A DNA stretch of 64,000 nucleotides from contig NZ_JSWG01000012.1 of the NCBI RefSeq assembly GCF_000797465.1, forward strand, positions 124,001 through 188,000. The letters are read 5' to 3'. The notes below the pieces were generated by a model. It saw only the letters and a list, made by a program, of their open reading frames with translations, had not been told where the DNA came from and ran no database searches. Positions 25,695-46,510 of this stretch are shown in pieces (the first letter of the stretch is position 1; the number at the start of each line of letters is the position of its first letter). Both the position numbers and the translations under genes were made by a program. The stretch is from Psychroserpens jangbogonensis (GTDB lineage Bacteria; Bacteroidota; Bacteroidia; Flavobacteriales; Flavobacteriaceae).

Positions 25695-25734
25695 CTGACA
25701 CTTTGTCATATTTTTTAAATTTATCGTATCTTTG
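25695..25734 (+). promoter_or_regulatory. miaB promoter with palindrome over the -33 element
   Basis: TTG at 25703-25705, 21 bp, then TATCTTTG (25727-25734) matches the Bacteroidetes consensus. The -33 element is embedded in TGACA-CTT-TGTCA (25696-25708), a perfect 5-bp-arm palindrome. A protein binding the palindrome would compete with or guide RNA polymerase. A leader of about 50 nt precedes the miaB ATG. Confidence 0.65.
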
Positions 25735-27248: not shown

Positions 27249-28517
27249 ATGGAATCAATACAAGCCATAAAACAACGTTTCGGAATTATAGGAAACAACC
27301 AAAAACTTAATCGTGCTATTGAAAAAGCGATTCAAGTATCACCTACTGATATTTCGGTATTGGTCACTGGAGAAAGTGGTGTTGGAAAAGAAAGTATTCC
27401 GAAAATCATACATCAATTATCACATCGTAAACACGGTAAATACATTGCGGTTAACTGTGGAGCAATTCCTGAAGGAACTATTGACAGTGAACTTTTTGGT
27501 CACGAAAAAGGAGCTTTTACAGGAGCAACTTCAACACGATCTGGTTATTTTGAAGTAGCAGATGGTGGAACTATATTTTTAGATGAAGTTGGCGAATTAC
27601 CGTTAACTACACAAGTCCGTTTATTACGTGTATTAGAAAATGGTGAATTTTTAAAAGTTGGATCAAGTAAAGTTCAAAAAACAGACGTTCGTATTGTAGC
27701 TGCAACCAACGTGAATATGTTTGAAGCTATAAAAAAAGAAAAGTTTCGTGAAGATTTGTATTACAGGCTAAGTACTGTAGAAATTGCCATTCCACCTCTT
27801 AGGGAACGTCAAGAAGATATTCACTTACTATTTAGAAAATTTGCAAGCGACTTTGCACTTAAATATAAAATGCCAACCATTAAACTTAACGATGATGCCG
27901 TTGCTGTTTTATTAAAGTTTCGTTGGAATGGTAACATTAGGCAATTACGTAATGTTGCCGAACAAATTTCGGTACTAGAACAAAATCGAATCATAAGCGC
28001 AGCTTCACTTCGAAGTTACTTACCAAATGCGTCAACCAATCTACCTGCCGTAATAAATAATTCTAAAGCTGAAAGTGATTTTAGTAATGAACGTGAGATT
28101 TTATATAAGGTTCTTTTTGATATGAAAAGTGATCTTTCAGATCTTAAAAAACTCACAATGGAGTTAATGAAAAGTGGCAATGCAAATGAAGTTCAAAAAG
28201 ACAACGAACACTTAATTGAGAAAATATATGGAGGCAATGAAAAAGAATCTTACGAAAATGATTTTCAAAATTTAGAAGTATTACCGCTTCCAGAAAATCA
28301 AGATACTTTTACAGAAACAATTGAAGAAAATTCACAAGACAAATATCATTTTGCCGAAGAGATTCAAGAAGAAGAAACGTTATCTCTACATGATAAAGAA
28401 TTGGAACTTATCAAAAAATCATTAGAACGTCATAACGGAAAACGGAAGTTAGCTGCTGCCGAATTAGGTATTAGCGAGCGCACGCTCTATAGAAAAATAA
28501 AGCAATACGATTTGTAG
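27249..28517 (+). CDS. Sigma54-dependent transcriptional activator without receiver domain
   Basis: 422 residues. The AAA+ domain starts almost at the N terminus: Walker A GESGVGKE (41-48), the sigma54-contact loop GAFTGA (88-93), Walker B GGTIFLDEVGELP, and the arginine region FREDLYYRLS. A Fis-type helix-turn-helix ends the protein (KLAAAELGISERTLYRKIKQ). Between them lies an acidic variable linker (about 260-390). There is no phosphorylatable receiver, so activity is probably controlled by another protein, by its linker or by expression, as for PspF-like activators. Co-directional with miaB (8-bp gap). The groES sigma54-like promoter 4.2 kb downstream is a candidate target. Confidence 0.93.
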   Translation: MESIQAIKQRFGIIGNNQKLNRAIEKAIQVSPTDISVLVTGESGVGKESIPKIIHQLSHRKHGKYIAVNCGAIPEGTIDSELFGHEKGAFTGATSTRSGYFEVADGGTIFLDEVGELPLTTQVRLLRVLENGEFLKVGSSKVQKTDVRIVAATNVNMFEAIKKEKFREDLYYRLSTVEIAIPPLRERQEDIHLLFRKFASDFALKYKMPTIKLNDDAVAVLLKFRWNGNIRQLRNVAEQISVLEQNRIISAASLRSYLPNASTNLPAVINNSKAESDFSNEREILYKVLFDMKSDLSDLKKLTMELMKSGNANEVQKDNEHLIEKIYGGNEKESYENDFQNLEVLPLPENQDTFTETIEENSQDKYHFAEEIQEEETLSLHDKELELIKKSLERHNGKRKLAAAELGISERTLYRKIKQYDL

Positions 28518-28545: not shown

Positions 28546-30528
28546 ATGATTCTAAAACGCTTTATTTTTTTCACCCTGCTTATGTTTCTATTGTCATGTA
28601 ATAGTGACCAGGAGGAGAATAATAGTATTCCTGAAGACACCACTCCGCCTGAAATCACCTTAATTGGTGATGCAACAATTAATCTTACTTTTGGAACAGC
28701 ATATGCGGAACTAAACGCTACCGCCACAGATGATGTTGATGGTGACATTTCCTCAAATATTGTTATTGGCGGTGCAACTGTAAATTCGGATATACCAAAC
28801 ACCTATATCATTACCTATGATGTGTCTGATGCGGCAGGAAATGCTGCAGATCAAGTGTTACGAACTGTGAATGTCTTACCGGACTCAAATCAACCAGTTA
28901 TAATGATCATTGGTGAAGCAACAATCGAACTGGCTTTTAGTGAAGCCTATGAAGAACTTGGAGCAGCAGCTGTTGATGATATCGATGGTGACATCTCTTC
29001 AGAAATAGTAATTGGTGGTGCAACTGTAGATTCGACTATACCTAACACCTATATCATTACCTATGATGTGTCTGATGCGGCAGGAAATGCTGCAGATCAA
29101 GTGTTACGAACTGTGAATGTATTACCAAACACAAGTCCTCCAGTTATAACACTCATTGGTGAAGCAACGATCGAATTGGCTTTTGGTGAAGCCTATGAAG
29201 AACTTGGAGCAACAGCTGTTGATGATATCGATGGTGATATCTCTTCAGAAATAGTAATTGGCGGAGATGTAGTAGACCCAAACGTTTCGGGCTCCTACGA
29301 AATTACATATAATGTTTCCGACTCATCAGAAAATGCTGCAGAACAAGTCATTAGAACTGTGAATGTAATTCCAGATACTAGTCCTCCAGTTATAACGCTC
29401 ATTGGAGAAGCAACTATCGAACATACTTTTGGTGAAACCTATGAAGAATCTGGTGCCACAGCTGTCGATGATAGCGATGGTGATATCTCTTCAGAAATAG
29501 TAATTGGCGGAGATGTAGTAAATCCAAATATTTCGGGTTCCTACGAAATTACATATAATGTTTCCGATCAGTCTGGAAATATGGCTGAAGAAGTTGTTAG
29601 AATGGTCAATGTGGCTGAAGGATCGTCAAGTACCATAATAGCTGAATGTCATTTGTTCTCCTATAATTCCGGAGTCACATCACTTCGAGCTAAATTAAGA
29701 TTTGATATTAATGGAAGAATTTCTTCTGTCGAAGAAGTCATTACAGGCACTGAATACTTTTATAATTTTGATAGTAATGGCAAACTAACTTCTATAATTG
29801 CCAATGGAACACCATTTATTGAGGTTTTTTATGATGCAAATGACAGAATCACTCAGATAAATGACAGAACTTTTGTATTCAATCCTATCATGTCTGATTA
29901 CATAAACGACTTTAATTTTAATCTATCAAACGCTTACTCAAATGGTTATGATAATCATTATCTTGAGGACTCCAGCATTAGCAGTACAACACAAGGACTG
30001 AATATAGATTATACATTTAATGTTTTAACTGTCGAAGACACTGGCTATATACGTTATTTTAAGAAAGATCTTATCTTTAGAGTATCTAATGACGGAAGCA
30101 CTTCCCTAATAACAAATCCAGACTTTGGTGTTTTAAATGTTTATAATATTAGATATGATGAAAATGATCTTTTACGCCAAATAGGAGTTGATTATAGCTA
30201 TGAAGGTCTAGTTTATTGGAATTCGACGATTAACCCTTTACATCAAAGTCAAACCAATCTATTACAAATTTTCTCTTTTTTACAACCATATCGAGAATTG
30301 TACAAAACAAACATCTTGTTTAATATTCACTTGTTCTCTAATTTAAATATAAATCAGCATTATCTTGATGAAGGCCCTTACACTATGTATGGATTTGGAT
30401 ACTCCCTCAATAATTTAGGAATGCCTGCGTCTTCCACGCGTGCATATTTAGTAAATTCTGGAACTTGGTTGGTTTATAGTCACATTGAAGCCAATTATTA
30501 TTATCAAGGCGATGAAATTCCCGATTAA
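28546..30528 (+). CDS. Lipoprotein with four Ig-like DUF5011 repeats
   Basis: 660 residues. Lipobox FLLSC (Cys18) and an acidic spacer, then four tandem 82-residue Ig-like repeats (about 35-362) with the pattern PVITLIGEATI, DDIDGDISSEIVIGG and YEITYNVSDxxGNAA, the DUF5011/HYR-type surface module. The remaining ~300 residues form a separate domain with RHS/YD-like short strands (FDSNGKLTSIIANG, FYDANDRITQIND). It is probably exposed on the cell surface; function unknown, adhesion being one possibility. It stands between the activator gene and lptE. Confidence 0.85.
   Translation: MILKRFIFFTLLMFLLSCNSDQEENNSIPEDTTPPEITLIGDATINLTFGTAYAELNATATDDVDGDISSNIVIGGATVNSDIPNTYIITYDVSDAAGNAADQVLRTVNVLPDSNQPVIMIIGEATIELAFSEAYEELGAAAVDDIDGDISSEIVIGGATVDSTIPNTYIITYDVSDAAGNAADQVLRTVNVLPNTSPPVITLIGEATIELAFGEAYEELGATAVDDIDGDISSEIVIGGDVVDPNVSGSYEITYNVSDSSENAAEQVIRTVNVIPDTSPPVITLIGEATIEHTFGETYEESGATAVDDSDGDISSEIVIGGDVVNPNISGSYEITYNVSDQSGNMAEEVVRMVNVAEGSSSTIIAECHLFSYNSGVTSLRAKLRFDINGRISSVEEVITGTEYFYNFDSNGKLTSIIANGTPFIEVFYDANDRITQINDRTFVFNPIMSDYINDFNFNLSNAYSNGYDNHYLEDSSISSTTQGLNIDYTFNVLTVEDTGYIRYFKKDLIFRVSNDGSTSLITNPDFGVLNVYNIRYDENDLLRQIGVDYSYEGLVYWNSTINPLHQSQTNLLQIFSFLQPYRELYKTNILFNIHLFSNLNINQHYLDEGPYTMYGFGYSLNNLGMPASSTRAYLVNSGTWLVYSHIEANYYYQGDEIPD
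28648..29631 (+). repeat. Four tandem 246-bp coding repeats
   Basis: Units at 28648-28893, 28894-29139, 29140-29385 and 29386-29631, each exactly 82 codons. Units 1 and 2 share an essentially identical ~75-bp block (28798-28872 and 29044-29118), while units 3 and 4 share a different version of the same part, so duplication or homogenisation occurred in pairs. Confidence 0.9.
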
Positions 30529-30800: not shown

Positions 30801-31307
30801 ATGAAACAAATTAACTACATCATACTTCTTTTTTCATCAATCATTCTATTAGGATGTGGACCATATTCGTTTACAGGAACTTCAATTGCAGATAATATTG
30901 AAACGTTCCAAGTTAATTATTTTCAAAATTCTTCAAACCTAGTAGAACCAGGATTAGATAGAGATTTTACTTTAGCATTACAAGATTTAATCCTTAATCA
31001 AACCAATTTAAGTATTGTGAATTCTGGTGGTGACTTAGTTTATGAAGGTGAAATTACAGAATATCGCATTTCTCCTACAACTGCGCAAGCAAATAGTACT
31101 GCGGCACAGAACAGACTAACCATTGGTGTAAATGTTCGGTTTTATGACAAAAATGAACCTGAAGAAGAGTTTGAACAACGCTTCTCTTTCTTTTTCGATT
31201 ATGAAGGTAGCGCACAATTAATAGGATCTCAAAAAGACACAGCAATAGAAGAAATTTTTGAACGTATCACTCAAGACATATTTAATGCTACCTTAGCTAA
31301 ATGGTAA
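30801..31307 (+). CDS. lptE: LptE-family LPS-assembly lipoprotein
   Basis: 168 residues with lipobox ILLGC (Cys19) followed by GPYSFTGTSI. The body has the LptE pattern: an early beta-strand with IETFQVNYFQNSS, a helix LDRDFTLALQDLILNQTNLSIV, strands GDLVYEGEITEYRISP and RLTIGVNVRFYDKN, and a terminal helix ending FNATLAKW. LptE forms the plug of the LptD outer-membrane translocon that delivers LPS to the cell surface. Followed by the TPR gene after 7 bp; the order lptE-TPR-secG-groESL is usual in Flavobacteriaceae. Confidence 0.88.
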   Translation: MKQINYIILLFSSIILLGCGPYSFTGTSIADNIETFQVNYFQNSSNLVEPGLDRDFTLALQDLILNQTNLSIVNSGGDLVYEGEITEYRISPTTAQANSTAAQNRLTIGVNVRFYDKNEPEEEFEQRFSFFFDYEGSAQLIGSQKDTAIEEIFERITQDIFNATLAKW

Positions 31308-31314
31308 TACTATT

Positions 31315-32271
31315 TTGAATACAACTGATTTCACATACATACTCCAAAACCCTCAGAATATTACTTCTGAGCAAACACAGCAATTGAAAGAATTAATTGT
31401 AGAGTTCCCGTACACACAATCAGCTAGAGCATTATATCTTAAAGGTCTTAAAAACAAAGACAGCTATAAATACAATCAAGAATTAAAAACGACAGCTGCT
31501 CACACAACAGATCGCAGTATTTTGTTTGATTACATAACTTCTGAAGCTTTTAATCAGAATGAGATTTCTCAGATTATCAAGCAAAACTCCGAACATCTCA
31601 AAGGCATGCTTGTCAATGAAGCCGATGACATTTCTGTAGACAAAAGTGTAACTATTGACGATGCTTTAAAAGAACATATAAAAAATACCGAAGGCGTTCT
31701 TGATCCTAACTTGTTTGAGGAAAAGTTAAAAAGAGAAGACGTCGCTAACTTTTTATCACTTAGAAATTCAACTCCAGAACAAGTCATTCTAGATATTGAC
31801 GCAAAAAATATCGAAGAAACTCCTGAAGAAGCGTTACAAATAGGAAAACCATTAGACTTTGATAAATCTGAAACACATTCATTCTCAGAATGGCTTAAAA
31901 TCACAAGTTTCAAACCGATTAACCGAGATGAAGAAAGTAGCGTTTTAGAAGAAAAAAGTGATACTAATTCTCAAAAAACTAAAAGTTCGGTAAGCAAAAA
32001 ATTTGAACTTATTGACAAGTTCTTACAAAGCAACCCGAAAATAGTACCTTCTAAAGACACGCCTAAAATAGAGATTAAATCTGAAGACACAGTTAAGCAT
32101 GATGGCTTAATGACAGAGACTTTAGCTAGAATTTATCTCGAACAAAAAAATTATGAAAAGGCAATTCAATCTTATAAAATTTTAAGTTTGAAATATCCAG
32201 AAAAAAGTGGTTTCTTTGCAGACCAAATTAAAGCAGTCAAACAATTACAAGAAAATAATACACAGAACTAA
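31315..32271 (+). CDS. TPR-containing protein with TTG start
   Basis: 318 residues. The frame has a stop at 31294 and no ATG before conserved sequence begins, so TTG 31315 is the likely start (ATT 31312 the only other option). The N-terminal ~90 residues are helical (ITSEQTQQLKELIVEFPYTQ and ARALYLKGLKN, as in many flavobacterial proteins at this locus), the middle is acidic and low in complexity, and residues about 270-310 form one clear TPR unit (LARIYLEQKNYEKAIQSYKI). No signal peptide; cytosolic. Role unknown; its fixed place between lptE and secG suggests an envelope or secretion link. Its stop overlaps the secG ATG by one base. Confidence 0.85.
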   Translation: MNTTDFTYILQNPQNITSEQTQQLKELIVEFPYTQSARALYLKGLKNKDSYKYNQELKTTAAHTTDRSILFDYITSEAFNQNEISQIIKQNSEHLKGMLVNEADDISVDKSVTIDDALKEHIKNTEGVLDPNLFEEKLKREDVANFLSLRNSTPEQVILDIDAKNIEETPEEALQIGKPLDFDKSETHSFSEWLKITSFKPINRDEESSVLEEKSDTNSQKTKSSVSKKFELIDKFLQSNPKIVPSKDTPKIEIKSEDTVKHDGLMTETLARIYLEQKNYEKAIQSYKILSLKYPEKSGFFADQIKAVKQLQENNTQN

Positions 32272-32624
32272 TGAATACGTTTACTATATTTTTAATCCTT
32301 ATCGTGCTTGTAGCATTTTTATTAATCGTTGTTGTTATGGTACAAAACCCAAAAGGTGGCGGATTATCATCTTCTTTTGGAGGTGGCGGAACACAACAAT
32401 TAGGTGGTGTTAAAAAGACAACAGATTTCTTAGATAAAAGTACTTGGGCATTAGCAACCTTATTGTTAGCATTAATTTTAGCTTCAAACTTTGCTATTCC
32501 TGGTGCAGGAGGCGCTCAAGATTCTAAAATAATTAATGGCGATGACACAGAAATTTCAATTCCTGTAACAACACCAGATACTCCAGCGGAAGACACTGCA
32601 ACTCCTGAAGGAGCTACAGAATAA
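32271..32624 (+). CDS. secG: Preprotein translocase subunit SecG
   Basis: 117 residues. Two transmembrane helices (about 3-24 and 57-76) with the SecG loop between them carrying VVMVQNPKGGGLSSSFGG and FLDKSTWALA. A flavobacterial acidic/Thr/Pro-rich tail follows. It assists SecYE in protein export. The ATG overlaps the TAA of the TPR gene (TAATG). A terminator follows, separating it from groES. Confidence 0.94.
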   Translation: MNTFTIFLILIVLVAFLLIVVVMVQNPKGGGLSSSFGGGGTQQLGGVKKTTDFLDKSTWALATLLLALILASNFAIPGAGGAQDSKIINGDDTEISIPVTTPDTPAEDTATPEGATE

Positions 32625-32645: not shown

Positions 32646-32678
32646 AAAAAATGCCAACTTAATAGTTGGCATTTTTTA
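32646..32678 (+). terminator. Terminator after secG
   Basis: ATGCCAACT and AGTTGGCAT pair around TAAT, extended by A/T runs, with a T6 tail. It ends the miaB-to-secG series and leaves groESL with its own promoter. Confidence 0.85.
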
Positions 32679-32681
32679 TTT

Positions 32682-32696
32682 CTGCAAGTTTGTCAG
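32682..32696 (+). promoter_or_regulatory. Imperfect palindrome upstream of the groES promoter
   Basis: CTGCAAGTTTGTCAG is an imperfect palindrome; the right half TTTGTCA is identical to the right half of the perfect palindrome over the miaB promoter (25695-25709), and 11 of 15 positions agree. It lies just upstream of the -24 element and could bind a shared activator or repressor. Confidence 0.4.
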
Positions 32697-32707
32697 TAAA
32701 AAAATAG

Positions 32708-32724
32708 CTGGCACATTTTTAGCA
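32708..32724 (+). promoter_or_regulatory. Sigma54-type -24/-12 promoter candidate for groESL
   Basis: CTGGCACATTTTTAGCA fits the sigma54 consensus YTGGCACGrNNNTTGCW with the invariant GG (32710-32711) and GC (32722-32723) separated by exactly 10 bp; mismatches fall only at weaker positions. Predicted start near 32735, giving a ~39-nt leader; a perfect palindrome CGCTTAAGCG (32728-32737) covers that start. No TAnnTTTG promoter is evident in the same gap. Confidence 0.6.
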
Positions 32725-32773
32725 TATCGCTTAAGCGTTAACAATAAACATTTAATTAAAAACTTATATAACA

Positions 32774-33049
32774 ATGAGCTTAAATATTAAACCATTAGCA
32801 GACAGAGTTCTTATTGAACCTGTTCAAGCTGAAACAAAAACAGCTTCGGGAATTATTATTCCAGACAACGCTAAAGAAAAACCACAACAAGGAAAAGTTG
32901 TTGCTGTTGGTAAAGGCACAACAGATGAACCTATGACTGTTAAAACTGGTGACACTGTTCTTTACGGAAAGTATGCAGGAACAGAATTAAAGTTAGAAGG
33001 TAAGGATTACCTCATCATGCGTGAAAGTGACATATTAGCAATTGTTTAA
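32774..33049 (+). CDS. groES: Co-chaperonin GroES
   Basis: 91 residues, full length. Core motif [16 protein letters not shown] at the start, the mobile loop around [19 protein letters not shown], and the closing [19 protein letters not shown]. The heptamer caps GroEL and closes the folding chamber. Followed by groEL after 22 bp. The leader shows a sigma54-like promoter rather than a CIRCE operator. Confidence 0.98.
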
Positions 33050-33065
33050 TCAACTTAAAAACTAG

Positions 33066-34706
<1,641 letters not shown>

Positions 34707-34857: not shown

Positions 34858-37278
34858 ATGAAGCATTTCTTCACCATTATGTTATTGTTACTATGTTTTA
34901 CTGCAAGTGTTTTCTCTCAAAATGAAAAAGAGATATTTGAAGATAATTACGCTTCATATTTTAATACAGAACGAGAAACTATTTACTTACACTTTAATAA
35001 AAACATCTTTTTATTAAATGAGTCTATATGGTTTAAAGGATACATTTATGACAAAAAAGGGAGCATTCCATTTATTACAACCTCTAACATCTATGTCAGC
35101 TTGTATGACAAAGATGGAAAAGTATTAAAAACAAACTTGTATTATGCCGAAAACGGAACGTTTTCTGGCCATTTTAAAGTCACTGAAAACCTAGCTTCTG
35201 GTCATTACTTTATTAAAGCACATACCAATTGGATGAAGAATTTTCATGAGGACGAGTCTTTTACTTCTGAGTCTATTGAAATTATAAATCCCAATTCTGA
35301 ACCTAATAATGTTTCAGAAAACAAAACGTCTTCTTTTGATTTACAATTTTTACCTGAAGGAGGCCATTGCACATCTGATGTTACAAATAGCATAGCTTAT
35401 AAAATTATAAATTGTGAAGGAATTGGATTAATGATCAGAGGAGAGATTGTAAATTCTAAAAATGAAATTATAAACACCTTTAAAAGCAATCAATTTGGTA
35501 TTGGCAAGTTTGAATTGCTCATGAAAACAGGAGAAAACTATACTGCAAGATATACTCTAAATGGCAAAGATTTTGAAACCGATTTACCAATAAGCAGTCC
35601 ACTAGGTTTTGCAATATCTTTAAACAATTACACGACTAAACTCATCACTTATTTAACTCTCAAAACCAATAAACATACACTTACAAAAGAGGCAGGCAAA
35701 ACTTATTATATAGTGATTCATCAAAATAATAAAAGTTCAATTATTAATCTTGAAATCGACAAATTAGACCTAAATCATGTCATCCCAATCGATAATAGGA
35801 GGCTTCCTATTGGTGTGAATACAATTACAGTATTTAATGACAAATTACAGCCAATGTTAGAGCGTTTAGTATTTAACTATAGAGAAGGTGATTATATTAA
35901 AATCAATCTCACTTCAAAAACAATTCGTAACGATTCTATACCAATTCATATTAATTTAAAAGACAAATCTAAAGCCGCATTTTCATCTAACATAAGTGTT
36001 TCTATTCTTCCAGGAGAAACAGAATCTTTAAGTACAAATAGAAACATTATAAGTGCTATGTATATTGATCCATACATAAATGGCGAACTAGAAAACGCAA
36101 ATTATTATTTTGAAGATGTTGATAGGATTAAATCCTTTCATCTTGATCTTACCTTACTCACTCAAGGCTGGAGTAAGTACAAATGGGATCATATTAAAAA
36201 AGGCGCTCAAAATCTCATCATTCCATTTGACAAAGGCGTCACTATCAATGGAACTATAAATGAAGATTTAGATCCAAGATCTAAGTATAAGATTCAAATG
36301 TTTTCACTTGTCAATAATATCAACGAAACGAGATCTATAGGAGAAGACAAAGGTTTTAATTTTGAAAATTATTTTATTCAAGATTCTACAAAAGTTCATT
36401 TTAGTGTTTTTAAAAATGGAGAAAAAATAACACAACCAAAGCTTTACGCAAGGGTTCTAAATAAAGATAGGAGTTCACTAAACCAAATTTTCGAATTAGC
36501 AAAATCATGTAGTATAATAGAATACAATAAAGTTAATGAGATAGTTACATATGCAGATATAGATTTTAACGGAGAAGTTCTAGACACAATAAATCTGTTT
36601 TCAAAAAAAGGTGTGAAACAAAAAAAGCGAGAAAACGTTTTAAAAGATATAGGTAATGCATACAGTAGAGGCATTAAAGTTGGTCCAGATCAAGAGAGAA
36701 CATATCCATATATTATAGATATCATTAATGCTAATGGATTTACTGCTAGAAATGACGTTGGCCGTATTACTATTTTTAACAGGCAACCTGTTTCTATACT
36801 TGCAAGTAATTCGCCATTACTCATAGTTGATGGTATTAATTTTGGTAGAGATTATCAGGTTTTAACCAGTATGCGAACCAATGAAATTGATGAAATCTAC
36901 TTTAATAAATTAGGTTTAGGTTATGGCTCAAGAGGAGCTGCTGGTGTAATAAGAATATACCTTAAAAAAAATTTAGGAGTGTTATCCGATAATAGTCTAG
37001 CTAGATATGCAAATTCTCTTTTGGTTAGTGGCGGTTTTGCTAATCAAAAAGAATTTTACTCACCTCTTTTCTATAATAAATCAAGCAATTTATTTAATGC
37101 TTACGGAGCAATTGATTGGCAACCTAAATTGATATCTGATAAAAATGGTGACATTCAATTCAAAATAAAAAATCCTAATGTAGACAAGCTATTATTTGTC
37201 ATCGAAGGATTTTCAGTAAATGGTAAATTAATTTCTGAAATTAAGGAAATATCGATTAGTAAAAGCACTAATAATTAA
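34858..37278 (+). CDS. Secreted macroglobulin-like / TonB-plug-domain protein, copy 1
   Basis: 806 residues with a signal peptide ending ASVFSQ. The N-terminal region carries a macroglobulin-like beta-sandwich (about 35-145; ETIYLHFNKNIFLLNESIWF and GHYFIKAHTNWMKNF); further beta domains follow; at about 640-705 there is a plug-like module (NSPLLIVDGINFGRDYQVL, IDEIYFNKLGLGYGSRGAAG, IRIYLKK) as in TonB-dependent receptors. There is no beta-barrel. A beta-sandwich ends the protein (IKNPNVDKLLFVIEGFS). Described homologues in Bacteroidetes are annotated only by the plug domain; their function is unknown. Tandem paralogue downstream after 54 bp. Confidence 0.85.
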   Translation: MKHFFTIMLLLLCFTASVFSQNEKEIFEDNYASYFNTERETIYLHFNKNIFLLNESIWFKGYIYDKKGSIPFITTSNIYVSLYDKDGKVLKTNLYYAENGTFSGHFKVTENLASGHYFIKAHTNWMKNFHEDESFTSESIEIINPNSEPNNVSENKTSSFDLQFLPEGGHCTSDVTNSIAYKIINCEGIGLMIRGEIVNSKNEIINTFKSNQFGIGKFELLMKTGENYTARYTLNGKDFETDLPISSPLGFAISLNNYTTKLITYLTLKTNKHTLTKEAGKTYYIVIHQNNKSSIINLEIDKLDLNHVIPIDNRRLPIGVNTITVFNDKLQPMLERLVFNYREGDYIKINLTSKTIRNDSIPIHINLKDKSKAAFSSNISVSILPGETESLSTNRNIISAMYIDPYINGELENANYYFEDVDRIKSFHLDLTLLTQGWSKYKWDHIKKGAQNLIIPFDKGVTINGTINEDLDPRSKYKIQMFSLVNNINETRSIGEDKGFNFENYFIQDSTKVHFSVFKNGEKITQPKLYARVLNKDRSSLNQIFELAKSCSIIEYNKVNEIVTYADIDFNGEVLDTINLFSKKGVKQKKRENVLKDIGNAYSRGIKVGPDQERTYPYIIDIINANGFTARNDVGRITIFNRQPVSILASNSPLLIVDGINFGRDYQVLTSMRTNEIDEIYFNKLGLGYGSRGAAGVIRIYLKKNLGVLSDNSLARYANSLLVSGGFANQKEFYSPLFYNKSSNLFNAYGAIDWQPKLISDKNGDIQFKIKNPNVDKLLFVIEGFSVNGKLISEIKEISISKSTNN

Positions 37279-37332: not shown

Positions 37333-39759
37333 ATGAAAGGACAACATTTAGTTTTATTCGTTTTACTATGCCTAATAGCAAACGTTACTAATGCTCAAGT
37401 AGAGAAAAAAAGTCAACTACAAAACACGTATGCATCCTATTATAGCTTAGAACGAGAAAACATACACCTACACCTAAACAAGAATGTTTTTATCCTTGAA
37501 GAACCTGTTTGGTTTAAAGCCTATATATACAATAAGGATACTAACAAGCCAGCAATAAATTCTACCAATATTTTTGTGGCATTATATGATGCAAATGGAA
37601 AAGAAATTGATAAGAAACTTTTTTTTGCACAGAATGGTGTCGTAAGTGGAACAATGGATTTAGGTACCAATGTAACACCAGGAAGCTATTACTTAAGAGC
37701 CTATACCAACTGGATGAATAATTTTCCAGAAGATGAATCTTTTGCATCTGTTCCATTTAATGTTGTTAATCCTTATAAAGGTGAAATAGAAGTATCAACA
37801 GAAGCAGTTACAACTGCACCACACGATATTCAATTTTTACCTGAAGGTGGTTATGCTATTGTAAATACAAATAATACTATTGGTGTAAAAACTACAAATC
37901 ACGAAGGAAAAGGAGCAAAAATAAATGGATCCATTTTTGACAATGATGATACAGAGGTCACAACCTTTAAAACGAATTTATTTGGTCTTGGCAAATTCAA
38001 TTTAACCTTTGAAGCGAATAAAATATACTATGCGATTTACACCATTGATGGCAAAGAGGAAAAAACATATTTACCTAAAGCAAAACCCACAGGGTTTACG
38101 ATATCAATAGATAATTATTCTAATGAGAAATACACATATATAAACCTTAAAACCAATATTAATACATTAGAACCTAATAAGAGTAAGACCTATTATCTTG
38201 TTATCAATCAGAATTCAAAAATATCGGTTGTCAATCTAGATTTAATTAATTTTAAAACTGAAAACACTATTCCTGTAGAATCTGCAAACTTAGTTCCAGG
38301 AGTGAATACTATTGCTCTGTTTGATGATAATATGAATCCAATTTTAGAACGCCTTATTTTCAATTACAACAATTTAAATTTAGCTTCAGTAAATACAAAT
38401 CTTAAAAAAGATAAAGATTCCATTACAATCAATTTAAAGGTCAATACTAAAAATAATCAAAATCAATTATCACATTTAAGTGTTAGTACTTTACCTAATC
38501 CTAATATTACCAATGCTTCAAAAGCAGATATCCTTTCTGCCTTTTTAATTCAACCATATATTAGAGGTCAGGTTCAAAATACGGGTCATTATTTTAAAAA
38601 TGTTGACCGATTAAAAAAATACGATTTAGATTTATTGCTACTCACTCAAGGATGGAGTAAATATGAATGGAAGAATATTAAAAAAGGGCAAATCCAAGCC
38701 ACATATAGTTTTGATGTAGGTCTTAAAGTTGAGGGCACTTTTAATAGAGTTGCTAAAAAGCATAATGAGAATAGAACTCAAATGTTTTCAATGACAAACG
38801 ACGTTAATGAATATACTGTTATTGATAAAAACACAAATAAATTTATTTTTGACAACTATTTTTTAAAAGATGGAGCTGTTATCAATTTTACATTGATAGA
38901 AAACGAAAGAGAAGTTCCCAAAGTTAGTCCTGTTATACAAACCACAAACGGTAAAAGAGTTTTAGTTCACCCCTTTCAAATTAAAAACTCCATCACCTCA
39001 GGCAAATCTAAAGAATCAGTTTTAAAAACAGCTTTTAAAGCTTATGGTATTGAAAGATTAGACACAGTAAACCTGTCGTATACTAAACAAAAGACTGTAG
39101 AGAAATCCATGAAACATGAAAAATCTCATATCGCAAATAAATATAGTAATGGGATAAAAATAGACTCTATTATAAAAAGAACTTATTTTAATATTGCGGA
39201 TCTAATTAATTCGAATGGTTTTGTCGTTGAAGATTTAGCAGGAAGTGGTTTCACGAGAATTAAAAGCAGAAGACCAGTTTCATTTTTAGCAAGTAATGAA
39301 CCCATTCTTATTATTGACGATGTAAATCTTGGCAATAACCATGATATTTTATTTAATATGACGTTTGAAGATATAGACGAAATATTCATTAGTACTAGTG
39401 GATTAGGTTATGGTGCAACTGGTGGAGCTGGAGTAATTAGAGTGTACAGAAAAGATGGCAGTCAATCTCTTGAACAAATGAAACTTAAAAATTATGGAGA
39501 TGTAGTAATTAAAGATGGTTTTTCAATTGAAAAGAAATTTTACGTACCAGCCTATTATTTTAAGTCTGATGATATATTAAACGAATTCACCTGCTTGGAT
39601 TGGAAGTCTGATATCACCACTAATGATTTAGGAATGTATAGCTATAAAATTAAAAATTTAGGACTTAATGAACTTGTTATAGTTATTCAAGGTTTTACTA
39701 GTACTGGTGAGCTAGTCTCAGAAATAAAGTCGATAAAAACCAGTAATCTCTCTGAATAA
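37333..39759 (+). CDS. Secreted macroglobulin-like / TonB-plug-domain protein, copy 2
   Basis: 808 residues, collinear with its neighbour from signal peptide (ending NVTNAQ) to C terminus: ENIHLHLNKNVFILEEPVWF, LRAYTNWMNNFPEDESFA, HDIQFLPEGGYA, DLDLLLLTQGWSKYEW, the plug-like NEPILIIDDVNLGNNHDIL with FISTSGLGYGATGGAGVIR, and KNLGLNELVIVIQGFT. The two are clearly a duplication, diverged enough that selection has probably kept both. Export to periplasm or surface is expected. It ends at a terminator shared with the convergent metal operon. Confidence 0.85.
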   Translation: MKGQHLVLFVLLCLIANVTNAQVEKKSQLQNTYASYYSLERENIHLHLNKNVFILEEPVWFKAYIYNKDTNKPAINSTNIFVALYDANGKEIDKKLFFAQNGVVSGTMDLGTNVTPGSYYLRAYTNWMNNFPEDESFASVPFNVVNPYKGEIEVSTEAVTTAPHDIQFLPEGGYAIVNTNNTIGVKTTNHEGKGAKINGSIFDNDDTEVTTFKTNLFGLGKFNLTFEANKIYYAIYTIDGKEEKTYLPKAKPTGFTISIDNYSNEKYTYINLKTNINTLEPNKSKTYYLVINQNSKISVVNLDLINFKTENTIPVESANLVPGVNTIALFDDNMNPILERLIFNYNNLNLASVNTNLKKDKDSITINLKVNTKNNQNQLSHLSVSTLPNPNITNASKADILSAFLIQPYIRGQVQNTGHYFKNVDRLKKYDLDLLLLTQGWSKYEWKNIKKGQIQATYSFDVGLKVEGTFNRVAKKHNENRTQMFSMTNDVNEYTVIDKNTNKFIFDNYFLKDGAVINFTLIENEREVPKVSPVIQTTNGKRVLVHPFQIKNSITSGKSKESVLKTAFKAYGIERLDTVNLSYTKQKTVEKSMKHEKSHIANKYSNGIKIDSIIKRTYFNIADLINSNGFVVEDLAGSGFTRIKSRRPVSFLASNEPILIIDDVNLGNNHDILFNMTFEDIDEIFISTSGLGYGATGGAGVIRVYRKDGSQSLEQMKLKNYGDVVIKDGFSIEKKFYVPAYYFKSDDILNEFTCLDWKSDITTNDLGMYSYKIKNLGLNELVIVIQGFTSTGELVSEIKSIKTSNLSE

Positions 39760-45259: not shown

Positions 45260-46510
45260 TTACATTCCTGTTCTAATAGCTTCAACAGGATCTAGTTTTG
45301 AAGCAGAAATTGCTGGTATAACTCCTGAAATCAATCCAATAAAAGTAGACAAAGCAAAACCTAAGAATACATTATAAAACGACAGTATAAACTCAAAATC
45401 ACCAGCCATTTCTGAGGCAATGAGTGAGACTATCCAGACTAAAACAATTCCTATTACTCCTCCAAGAACAGATAAAATAATCGCTTCAAATAAAAACTGA
45501 AAGAGGATAAAACGATTTTTAGCTCCTAAAGACTTTTGAATTCCTATAAGGTTTGTTCGTTCTTTTACGCTTACAAACATAATATTAGCAATACCAAAAC
45601 CACCTACCAATAGAGAGAATCCACTTATAATCCAACCAATAAGATTCAGTGTTCCAATAATCCCATCAATAGCGTCTGTAAATCCAGACATTTTATTCAC
45701 AAAGAAATTATCTGGCTCTCCAGCTTTTAAACCTCTATACACACGATATTTTTGTTTTAAGACCTGCTCAAAAGCACCAATATCGACATTCTTTTCAGGT
45801 TTAATAATTATCGCTCCTGGAACGCCATTAGGGCCTCCACTTTTAAAACGTCTCACAAAGTTTACAGGCACGTATGCCTTATCATCAGGCGAATCAAATA
45901 TTCCTGACCCAAATTTCTTTAATATACCAATCACAGTAAGTTTTCTTCCGTAAACACGGACTTGCTTTCCAATAGGATTTAAATTTCCGAATAAGTTTTC
46001 GGCTACAGAAAATCCTAAAACGATAACAGGTGCACCAGAATTTGACTCCGATTCCGTGTAAAAACGGCCGTTCTCAACTTTAAAATCCTCAATCTCATAA
46101 ATCCCATTAGACACAGGAGTTACTTCAACACCTGAAACTGATTCTCCTTGATATTTTATCGATTCTGAATTACCAAACATAACATAAGCAATGGCTTCAA
46201 TTTCCGGAACATTCCGTTCTATAAACTCAAAATCATCATGTTCTGTCTGCGGATAATTATCACGTTGCCATCTTGGCACATCTGTAGGTCCAAATGAATA
46301 CTTTGTAAGATATATTGTGTTTTTATCTAAACCAGATAAATCTTCTTTTATGCTTCGGTCTAAAGAATCAACAGCTGCAAGTACAGCAATAATTGAAAAA
46401 ATACCAATGGTAATACCTAATAAAGATAAGAGTGTACGCAGTTTATTATTACGCAACGCATTAAGAGCAAATGAAAAACTTTCTTTAAATAATCTTAGAT
46501 AAACGAGCAT
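45260..46510 (-). CDS. MacB-like ABC transporter permease
   Basis: 416 residues from MLVYLRLFKESFSF; the open frame extends 20 codons upstream without export features, and this Met places the first helix at the usual position (LRTLLSLLGITIGIFSI). MacB periplasmic domain (about 60-270; VEVTPVSNGIYEIED, PVIVLGFSVAENLFGN, VRVYGRKLTVIGIL) and FtsX-type three-helix core (about 290-405; GIANIMFVSVKERTNLIGIQKSLGA) ending GVIPAISASKLDPVEAIR. Export or mechanotransmission family. The ATPase gene is not adjacent. Confidence 0.9.
   Translation of the reverse strand: MLVYLRLFKESFSFALNALRNNKLRTLLSLLGITIGIFSIIAVLAAVDSLDRSIKEDLSGLDKNTIYLTKYSFGPTDVPRWQRDNYPQTEHDDFEFIERNVPEIEAIAYVMFGNSESIKYQGESVSGVEVTPVSNGIYEIEDFKVENGRFYTESESNSGAPVIVLGFSVAENLFGNLNPIGKQVRVYGRKLTVIGILKKFGSGIFDSPDDKAYVPVNFVRRFKSGGPNGVPGAIIIKPEKNVDIGAFEQVLKQKYRVYRGLKAGEPDNFFVNKMSGFTDAIDGIIGTLNLIGWIISGFSLLVGGFGIANIMFVSVKERTNLIGIQKSLGAKNRFILFQFLFEAIILSVLGGVIGIVLVWIVSLIASEMAGDFEFILSFYNVFLGFALSTFIGLISGVIPAISASKLDPVEAIRTGM

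What the first reader, a model, noticed from the sequence alone, without database searches (positions are those of the whole stretch)
32682..32737. Sigma54-type promoter and palindrome in front of groESL, with a sigma54 activator in the same cluster
Seen: CTGGCACATTTTTAGCA has GG and GC exactly 10 bp apart and matches the sigma54 consensus at nearly all strong positions; 12 bp upstream is the imperfect palindrome CTGCAAGTTTGTCAG; the perfect 10-bp palindrome CGCTTAAGCG sits over the predicted start. No CIRCE and no TAnnTTTG promoter are present. A receiver-less sigma54 enhancer-binding protein with intact GAFTGA is encoded 4.2 kb upstream. Known: sigma54 promoters need an AAA+ activator; groESL is usually under HrcA or sigma32 in other phyla. 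Inference: in this lineage chaperonin expression may be under sigma54 and the local activator.
Basis: partly seen in the sequence, partly recalled or inferred. Interest (0 to 1): 0.72.

Follow-up and report, generated by a model that had tools for sequence, protein, structure and literature searches.

The report
Sigma54 switch for the chaperonin operon
In this flavobacterium-like organism and across its class, the genes for the GroES/GroEL protein-folding machine appear to be switched on by the sigma54 form of RNA polymerase and a dedicated activator encoded nearby, which may also explain why most tiny symbiont genomes of this group keep sigma54.

Summary
Within 150 bp upstream of groES, TGGYA-N8-GH (GG-N10-G) occurs in 117 of 124 distinct sequences of a family-centred set, 38 of 40 from 14 other families of the order, and 23 of 26 from elsewhere in the class (1.7, 0.7, 0.8 expected). 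CIRCE is in none of these; HrcA is in 0 of 54 class members sampled. In other classes, 17 of 18 sampled HrcA genomes have CIRCE. The palindrome is a degenerate copy of a 13-bp operator, TGNCA-N3-TGTCA, which also overlaps the promoter of the operon encoding the activator: 68 of 69 loci, 18 of 20 further genomes. At groES it keeps 10.5-bp helical phase with the -24 box. In one family of reduced genomes, all 55 with RpoN keep one activator locus 0.1-1.6 kb before groES; of 13 without RpoN, the 11 readable groES upstreams have neither element. Sigma54-driven groESL is already published for F. psychrophilum (PMC9723704). I found no paper naming the activator, operator or phasing. Nothing here is experimental.

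The parts
32709..32724 (+). sigma54 -24/-12 promoter of groESL (TGGCACATTTTTAGCA)
   Evidence: pattern in 117 of 124 distinct sequences of the family-centred set
32683..32695 (+). degenerate activator operator TGCAA-GTT-TGTCA, 13 nt before the -24 T
32728..32737 (.). perfect palindrome CGCTTAAGCG over the predicted start (about 32735, inferred); role unknown
   Evidence: related palindrome in 31 of 117 distinct sequences
32652..32677 (+). likely intrinsic terminator of secG (TGCCAACT...AGTTGGCA plus T run)
   Evidence: read directly; no terminator scan was run
25696..25708 (+). activator operator TGACA-CTT-TGTCA in front of the miaB-EBP operon
25702..25734 (+). likely housekeeping promoter of miaB-EBP, TTTG-N21-TATCTTTG, its upstream element inside the operator
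   Evidence: the TTTG upstream element is recalled, TAnnTTTG is in PMC9723704
25795..27240 (+). miaB, head of the presumed operon
   Evidence: TIGR01574 over cut-off
27249..28517 (+). sigma54 enhancer-binding protein, 422 aa, no N-terminal sensor domain, GAFTGA intact: proposed activator of groESL
28546..30528 (+). Ig-like repeat protein between EBP and lptE
30801..31307 (+). lptE
31315..32271 (+). unassigned protein (no Pfam or NCBIfam match)
32271..32624 (+). secG
32774..33049 (+). groES
33072..34706 (+). groEL

Best explanation
groESL is transcribed by RNA polymerase with sigma54 from the -24/-12 site at 32709-32724. The activator is the EBP at 27249-28517, which binds 13-bp operators TGNCA-N3-TGTCA placed at whole helical turns upstream of the promoter and uses its GAFTGA AAA+ domain to open the complex. 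The same protein binds an operator overlapping the upstream element of the housekeeping promoter of its own operon (25696-25708) and probably represses it. Shown here: conservation, a shared operator, phasing, co-occurrence with RpoN, exchange with HrcA/CIRCE. Published for a relative: a mapped groES 5' end at a sigma54 motif. Inferred: binding by this EBP, activation, autorepression, and a stress signal (nature unknown; the EBP has no recognisable sensor domain).
For: Conservation of the site with 0.1 to 1.7 chance matches expected per set. The top half-site spacing is N3 in two sets: 55 of 125 and 11 of 45 against 0.10 and 0.04. In 1.33 Mb of 69 loci there are 115 operator matches: 68 before miaB-EBP, 42 before groES, 5 elsewhere. 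Operator before miaB or EBP in 68 of 69 and 18 of 20. Operator-to-promoter distances cluster near 12, 23, 33, 43, 53, 63, 75 and 95: period 10.5 bp, R 0.87, Rayleigh p 8e-11 for 31 pairs outside the family. Family f16: 55 of 55 RpoN+ genomes have one EBP locus, 107-1602 bp upstream of groES on the same strand; 12 of 13 RpoN- genomes have no EBP match. Promoter pattern in 10 of 12 RpoN+ against 0 of 11 RpoN-. In two single-EBP genomes groES is the top-scoring site, and grpE also carries an operator plus a -24/-12-like site. In F. psychrophilum, groES, lon, dnaK, grpE-dnaJ, htpG and clpB have sigma54-motif 5' ends.
Against: Two RpoN+ reduced genomes with the EBP, G390 and G391, lack a full site at groES. 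In the family-centred set 7 of 124 lack the pattern (two of these, L077 and L196, only because GG stands at -13/-12), among them G045, which has RpoN and the EBP but no operator in the 3 kb before the EBP. Three class members, one family, also lack it. The -12 position is often A rather than C. One operator distance, 7, is out of phase. The window's own groES operator is degenerate (TGCAA, not TGNCA). No binding, 5'-end or mutant data exist for this organism. The scoring matrix was trained on groES sites including 4 from f16, so groES ranking first in G083 and G103 is partly circular.
Confidence: 0.87

Rival explanations
1. groESL is sigma54-dependent, but another regulator (another EBP or a separate DNA-binding protein) binds the operator, and the neighbouring EBP is a bystander kept by synteny.
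For: Most relatives have more than one EBP match, and the F. psychrophilum authors leave the activators open among three.
Against: The operator sits before the EBP's own operon even where EBP and groES are on different contigs or far apart (G072, G085, G114, G080, G076; contig breaks could hide some linkage); in 55 of 55 RpoN+ f16 genomes only one EBP locus was found; where RpoN and the EBP are lost the operator is absent from the groES upstream (0 of 11, against 8 of 12 with RpoN).
Confidence: 0.1
2. The conserved block is a housekeeping promoter or repressor operator unrelated to sigma54, and the GG-N10-GC pattern is coincidental.
For: The -12 base varies, and TTTG and TTGTCA strings near -40 look like upstream promoter elements.
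Against: No TAnnTTTG in the window's secG-groES interval; GG and G at N10 are kept while several other positions vary; absent where RpoN is absent; published sigma54-motif 5' end in a relative.
Confidence: 0.03

Closest known systems
SM4 (sigma54) promoters of Flavobacterium psychrophilum, including groES-groEL (PMC9723704; passages and section 15 part 1 read, supplements not seen)
   Same: Mapped 5' ends at -24/-12 motifs for groESL, dnaK, grpE, lon, htpG, clpB; locus tags suggest the same EBP-lptE-...-groESL order
   Different: The activators were not assigned and, in the part read, no operator, phasing or autoregulation is described; the EBP-lptE unit there is listed under motif SM5 (TAnnTTGY), not TAnnTTTG
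sigma54 regulon prediction across phyla (PMC12316311; passages read)
   Same: Predicts sigma54 control of GroEL, GroES, DnaK, GrpE, enriched in Flavobacteriia and Bacteroidia, and states sigma54 dependence of GroES and GrpE in B. thetaiotaomicron
   Different: In the passages read, no dedicated activator, operator, HrcA exchange or symbiont test
PspF-type EBPs
   Same: AAA+ domain near the N-terminus without a sensor domain, HTH at the C-terminus
   Different: TIGR02974 264.8 bits against a cut-off of 443.55; sits with groESL; PspF autorepression is recalled as an analogy
HrcA/CIRCE control of groESL
   Same: Controls the same operon; found in other classes of the same phylum
   Different: Repressor on a CIRCE operator; HrcA in 0 of 54 class members sampled
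Bradyrhizobium groESL3 under NifA and sigma54 (recalled, not searched)
   Same: A chaperonin operon under sigma54 and an EBP
   Different: One of several copies, tied to nitrogen fixation; here groES is the only copy found in the own genome

Membership tests
sigma54-dependent promoter | GG-N10-GC with TGGCAC-N5-TTGC consensus (consensus recalled) | tested here: met
   one mismatch in the window, pattern conserved through the class
sigma54-dependent promoter | rpoN in the genome | tested here: met
sigma54-dependent promoter | mapped 5' end and RpoN dependence in this organism | not testable with these tools
   published mapped 5' end in F. psychrophilum only
sigma54 enhancer-binding protein | Sigma54_activat AAA+ domain with Walker A and B and GAFTGA loop | tested here: met
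   GxFTGA 74 of 74 (63 GAFTGA, 11 GSFTGA); Walker B 74 of 74; Walker A pattern 73 of 74
sigma54 enhancer-binding protein | operator upstream of the target promoter | tested here: met
   by sequence only; binding itself not tested
PspF | NCBIfam PspF equivalog cut-off | tested here: not met
   264.8 of 443.55 bits
NifA | NCBIfam NifA equivalog cut-off | tested here: not met
   299.4 of 528.85 bits
HrcA/CIRCE regulon | CIRCE before groES and HrcA in the genome | tested here: not met
sigma32 (RpoH) heat-shock regulon | rpoH gene and its promoter | not tested
   no RpoH search was made

The most novel reading that the evidence does not exclude
A dedicated sigma54 chaperone circuit replaced HrcA/CIRCE at the base of the class (Bacteroidia by inference): one sensorless EBP represses its own operon and activates groESL and grpE (and likely lon and dnaK) from phased 13-bp operators. 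This circuit, not nitrogen control, would be the core reason RpoN was found in 54 of 54 class members of the phylum sample and is kept in most 0.3-0.6 Mb symbiont genomes.
Probability: 0.6. Interest if true: 0.82.

Novelty: new variant of a known kind. Interest (0 to 1): 0.72.

Why it matters
It proposes the missing activator of the sigma54 chaperone genes in a major bacterial class in which no HrcA was found, gives a 13-bp operator that can be searched genome by genome, and offers a testable reason why flavobacterial endosymbionts keep RpoN, which one paper tentatively linked to nitrogen (PMC3971599, passages). It also shows an exchange of chaperonin control inside one phylum: repressor and CIRCE on one side, sigma54 and activator on the other.

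Tried and rejected
Single-window statistics: the -24/-12 match alone is at chance level, as is the own-genome pattern. Own-genome pattern TGTCA-N8-20-TGGCA: 69 matches against 26 for the reversed control. Of the 53 loci kept from these two patterns (30 of 69 and 23 of 23), only groES combined an intergenic -24/-12 site with an operator, so other targets in this genome remain unknown. In G083 the dnaK and clpB upstreams, read by eye, showed no strong site; dnaK has a weak one (GGGCA...TTGA); no htpG was found by the short motif used. CTGGCACAGAGTTAGCC in G083 was set aside as 16S rRNA, from recall. ftsH in G083 has a weaker site without operator. Flavobacterium secG hairpins contain TGCCA-N3-TGTCA, so part of the 42 groES operator matches lie in the terminator; kept as a note. 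PMC12596196 (B. thetaiotaomicron networks): one heat-shock passage, no RpoN or groE in the text.

Limits: chance expectations come from mononucleotide shuffles and ignore relatedness. The family-centred set holds 125 sequences: the own locus, 80 named loci chosen by groES similarity, 29 loci of unnamed relatives and 15 further genomes; some named loci are labelled only Bacteroidetes or Cytophagales. One sequence, L159, was dropped for masked bases and one duplicate merged. Of 55 RpoN+ f16 genomes only 12 groES upstreams were read; of 13 RpoN- genomes 11 (two have no groES match). The 11 come from 3 genera, so perhaps 1-3 losses, and the RpoN- assemblies are rated 72-96% complete; they are very AT-rich, so missing half-sites there mean little on their own. 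The N3 operator layout was first noticed in f16 genomes (4 of the 45 distant sequences); the miaB test came afterwards. The phasing test tried five periods and counts several operators per upstream. That the organism is a flavobacterium, that f16 are insect symbionts, and the class name are inferred from named relatives, genome sizes and PMC3971599.

Full report
What was checked. The gene order is miaB, EBP, an Ig-like protein, lptE, an unassigned protein, secG, groES, groEL. Taken alone the promoter match is unremarkable: 34 matches with up to two mismatches in the window against 31 expected, and 23 against 18 control matches in the own genome.

Conservation. Within 150 bp upstream, TGGYA-N8-GH occurs in 117 of 124 distinct sequences of the family-centred set (1.7 expected), 38 of 40 from families f2-f15 of the order (0.7), 10 of 12 RpoN-bearing members of family f16 (0.1), and 23 of 26 other members of the class (0.8). 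The three class misses, G147, G205 and G228, are all in family f18. RpoN's PF04552 is found in 115 of 116 relatives and 218 of 218 phylum genomes; the EBP query matches 115 of 116 relatives at 1e-60 or better, G097 only at 44% identity.

Exchange with HrcA. PF01628 is found in 124 of 218 phylum genomes and in none of the 54 class members; 40 of the 164 others also lack it (the class count was made by hand from the listing, and the 124 listed hits were counted by family). Of 22 groES upstreams from other classes, the 18 from genomes with HrcA have CIRCE in 17 and the sigma54-like pattern in 1 (L343, where it lies about 150 bp upstream and a CIRCE-like repeat is also present). The 4 from genomes without HrcA have no CIRCE and the pattern in 3.

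The operator. In reduced genomes a palindrome TGACA-N3-TGTCA or TGTCA-N3-TGACA stands before the promoter. Tested over spacings 0-29, N3 is the commonest spacing between TGNCA half-sites upstream of groES: 55 of 125 and 11 of 45 sequences, with 0.10 and 0.04 expected; many other spacings are also above chance but lower. The window holds two matches to TGNCA-N3-TGNCA: TGACACTTTGTCA at 25696-25708, before the miaB-EBP operon, and TGCCATCTTGGCA at 46266. Upstream of miaB the operator is present in 68 of 69 readable loci, with no sigma54 pattern in any; 0.12 would be expected in shuffled upstreams. TAnnTTTG follows 16-20 nt after it in 64 of 68, exactly 18 in 48, so the operator overlaps the place of the upstream promoter element. 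In 20 genomes chosen from other families or with an unusual arrangement it lies before miaB or the EBP in 18 (G079 and G045 lack it; in G076 no miaB was found and it stands 72 bp before the EBP match), including genomes where EBP and groES are not neighbours. Over the 69 loci, 1.33 Mb, there are 115 operator matches: 68 at miaB, 42 at groES, 5 elsewhere.

Phasing. The gap between operator and -24 box clusters near 12, 23, 33, 43, 53, 63, 75 and 95, with single values of 7 and 83. The best of five periods tried is 10.5 bp: R 0.86 for 84 pairs, 0.80 for 39 distinct family-distance pairs (0 of 5000 random placements reached this), 0.87 for 31 pairs outside the family (p 8e-11). This is what an activator working from one face of the DNA would leave. 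The window's degenerate operator, 13 nt from the -24 T, fits the first turn.

The natural experiment. Family f16 has 68 held genomes of 0.2-1.3 Mb; 55 have RpoN. All 55 have one EBP locus at 1e-10 (in three of them split into two matches), on the contig and strand of groES and 107-1602 bp upstream of it. Of 13 without RpoN, 12 have no EBP match, and G376 has a 36%-identical one near the end of a 19.6-kb contig. Promoter pattern: 10 of 12 with RpoN, 0 of 11 without; operator: 8 of 12 against 0 of 11. Against the idea, G390 and G391 keep RpoN and EBP without a full groES site. G391's contig length, 309,299 bp, equals that given for Walczuchella in PMC3971599, whose authors call RpoN retention unusual and suggest a nitrogen role (passages read).

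Targets in single-EBP genomes. In G083 (345 kb) the best-scoring site of the genome is groES; several sites inside ORFs also score high. grpE carries an operator plus a weaker -24/-12 site (TTGCA for TGGCA) and lon a site without operator; the operator pattern occurs three times in all, the third inside an ORF (GrpE and Lon confirmed by Pfam). In G103 (624 kb) groES is again best; among the top 40 sites of each strand the only other intergenic one within 250 bp of a following ORF is grpE, also with an operator. The operator pattern occurs six times there: at grpE, miaB and groES, one other intergenic place and two ORFs. The matrix was trained on 99 distinct groES sites, 4 of the source genomes being f16, so the groES ranks are partly circular; grpE and lon were not in the training set.

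Literature. PMC9723704 (passages and section 15 part 1 read) reports mapped 5' ends at sigma54 motifs for groES-groEL, lon, dnaK, grpE-dnaJ, htpG and clpB in F. psychrophilum and leaves the activators open among three EBPs; it lists the EBP-lptE unit under another motif, SM5. PMC12316311 (passages) predicts the same enrichment and states sigma54 dependence of GroES and GrpE in B. thetaiotaomicron. In the listings of searches and the four papers opened I saw no assignment of the activator or description of the operator; the library holds only open-licence papers.

Verdict. The novelty lies in the proposed activator, its operator, the phasing, the likely autorepression, and the explanation for RpoN retention, all comparative and awaiting bench tests.

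Noticed in passing
window 28089-28148 (EBP residues 281-300): A stretch between the AAA+ lid and the HTH, EREILYKVLFDMKSDLSDLK, has mean conservation 0.91 over 74 EBPs though no Pfam match covers it; a candidate site for the missing signal input.
   Followed up: no
groES upstreams of Flavobacterium loci such as L032, L036, L044: The secG terminator hairpin contains TGCCA-GCC-TGTCA, so terminator and activator operator seem fused.
   Followed up: partly
window 32728-32737 and relatives: Palindrome AYGC-N4-GCR over the predicted start in 31 of 117 distinct sequences; the outer pair is C-G in 28 and T-A in 3, never mixed (the window's own copy has T for the A). Role unknown.
   Followed up: partly
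L332, L333 (family f36) and L323 (family f25): groES promoters TGGTACGGATGTTGC, TGGTACGGAACTTGC and TGGCACAGCCTTTGC in HrcA-less members of other classes: sigma54 control of groESL may reach beyond the class.
   Followed up: no
L238 (G376 contig 1): EBP-like stretch, 36% identical to the query, in an RpoN-less assembly, near the end of a short contig; perhaps contamination.
   Followed up: partly
L245 (G000 contig 4, 104482): Intergenic TTGGCACATGTTTTGAA 45 bp before a predicted 299-aa protein with a signal-peptide-like start, without the operator; perhaps a target of another EBP.
   Followed up: no
window 34858-37278 and 37333-39759: Two neighbouring, similar-looking proteins of 806 and 808 aa follow groEL.
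   Followed up: no
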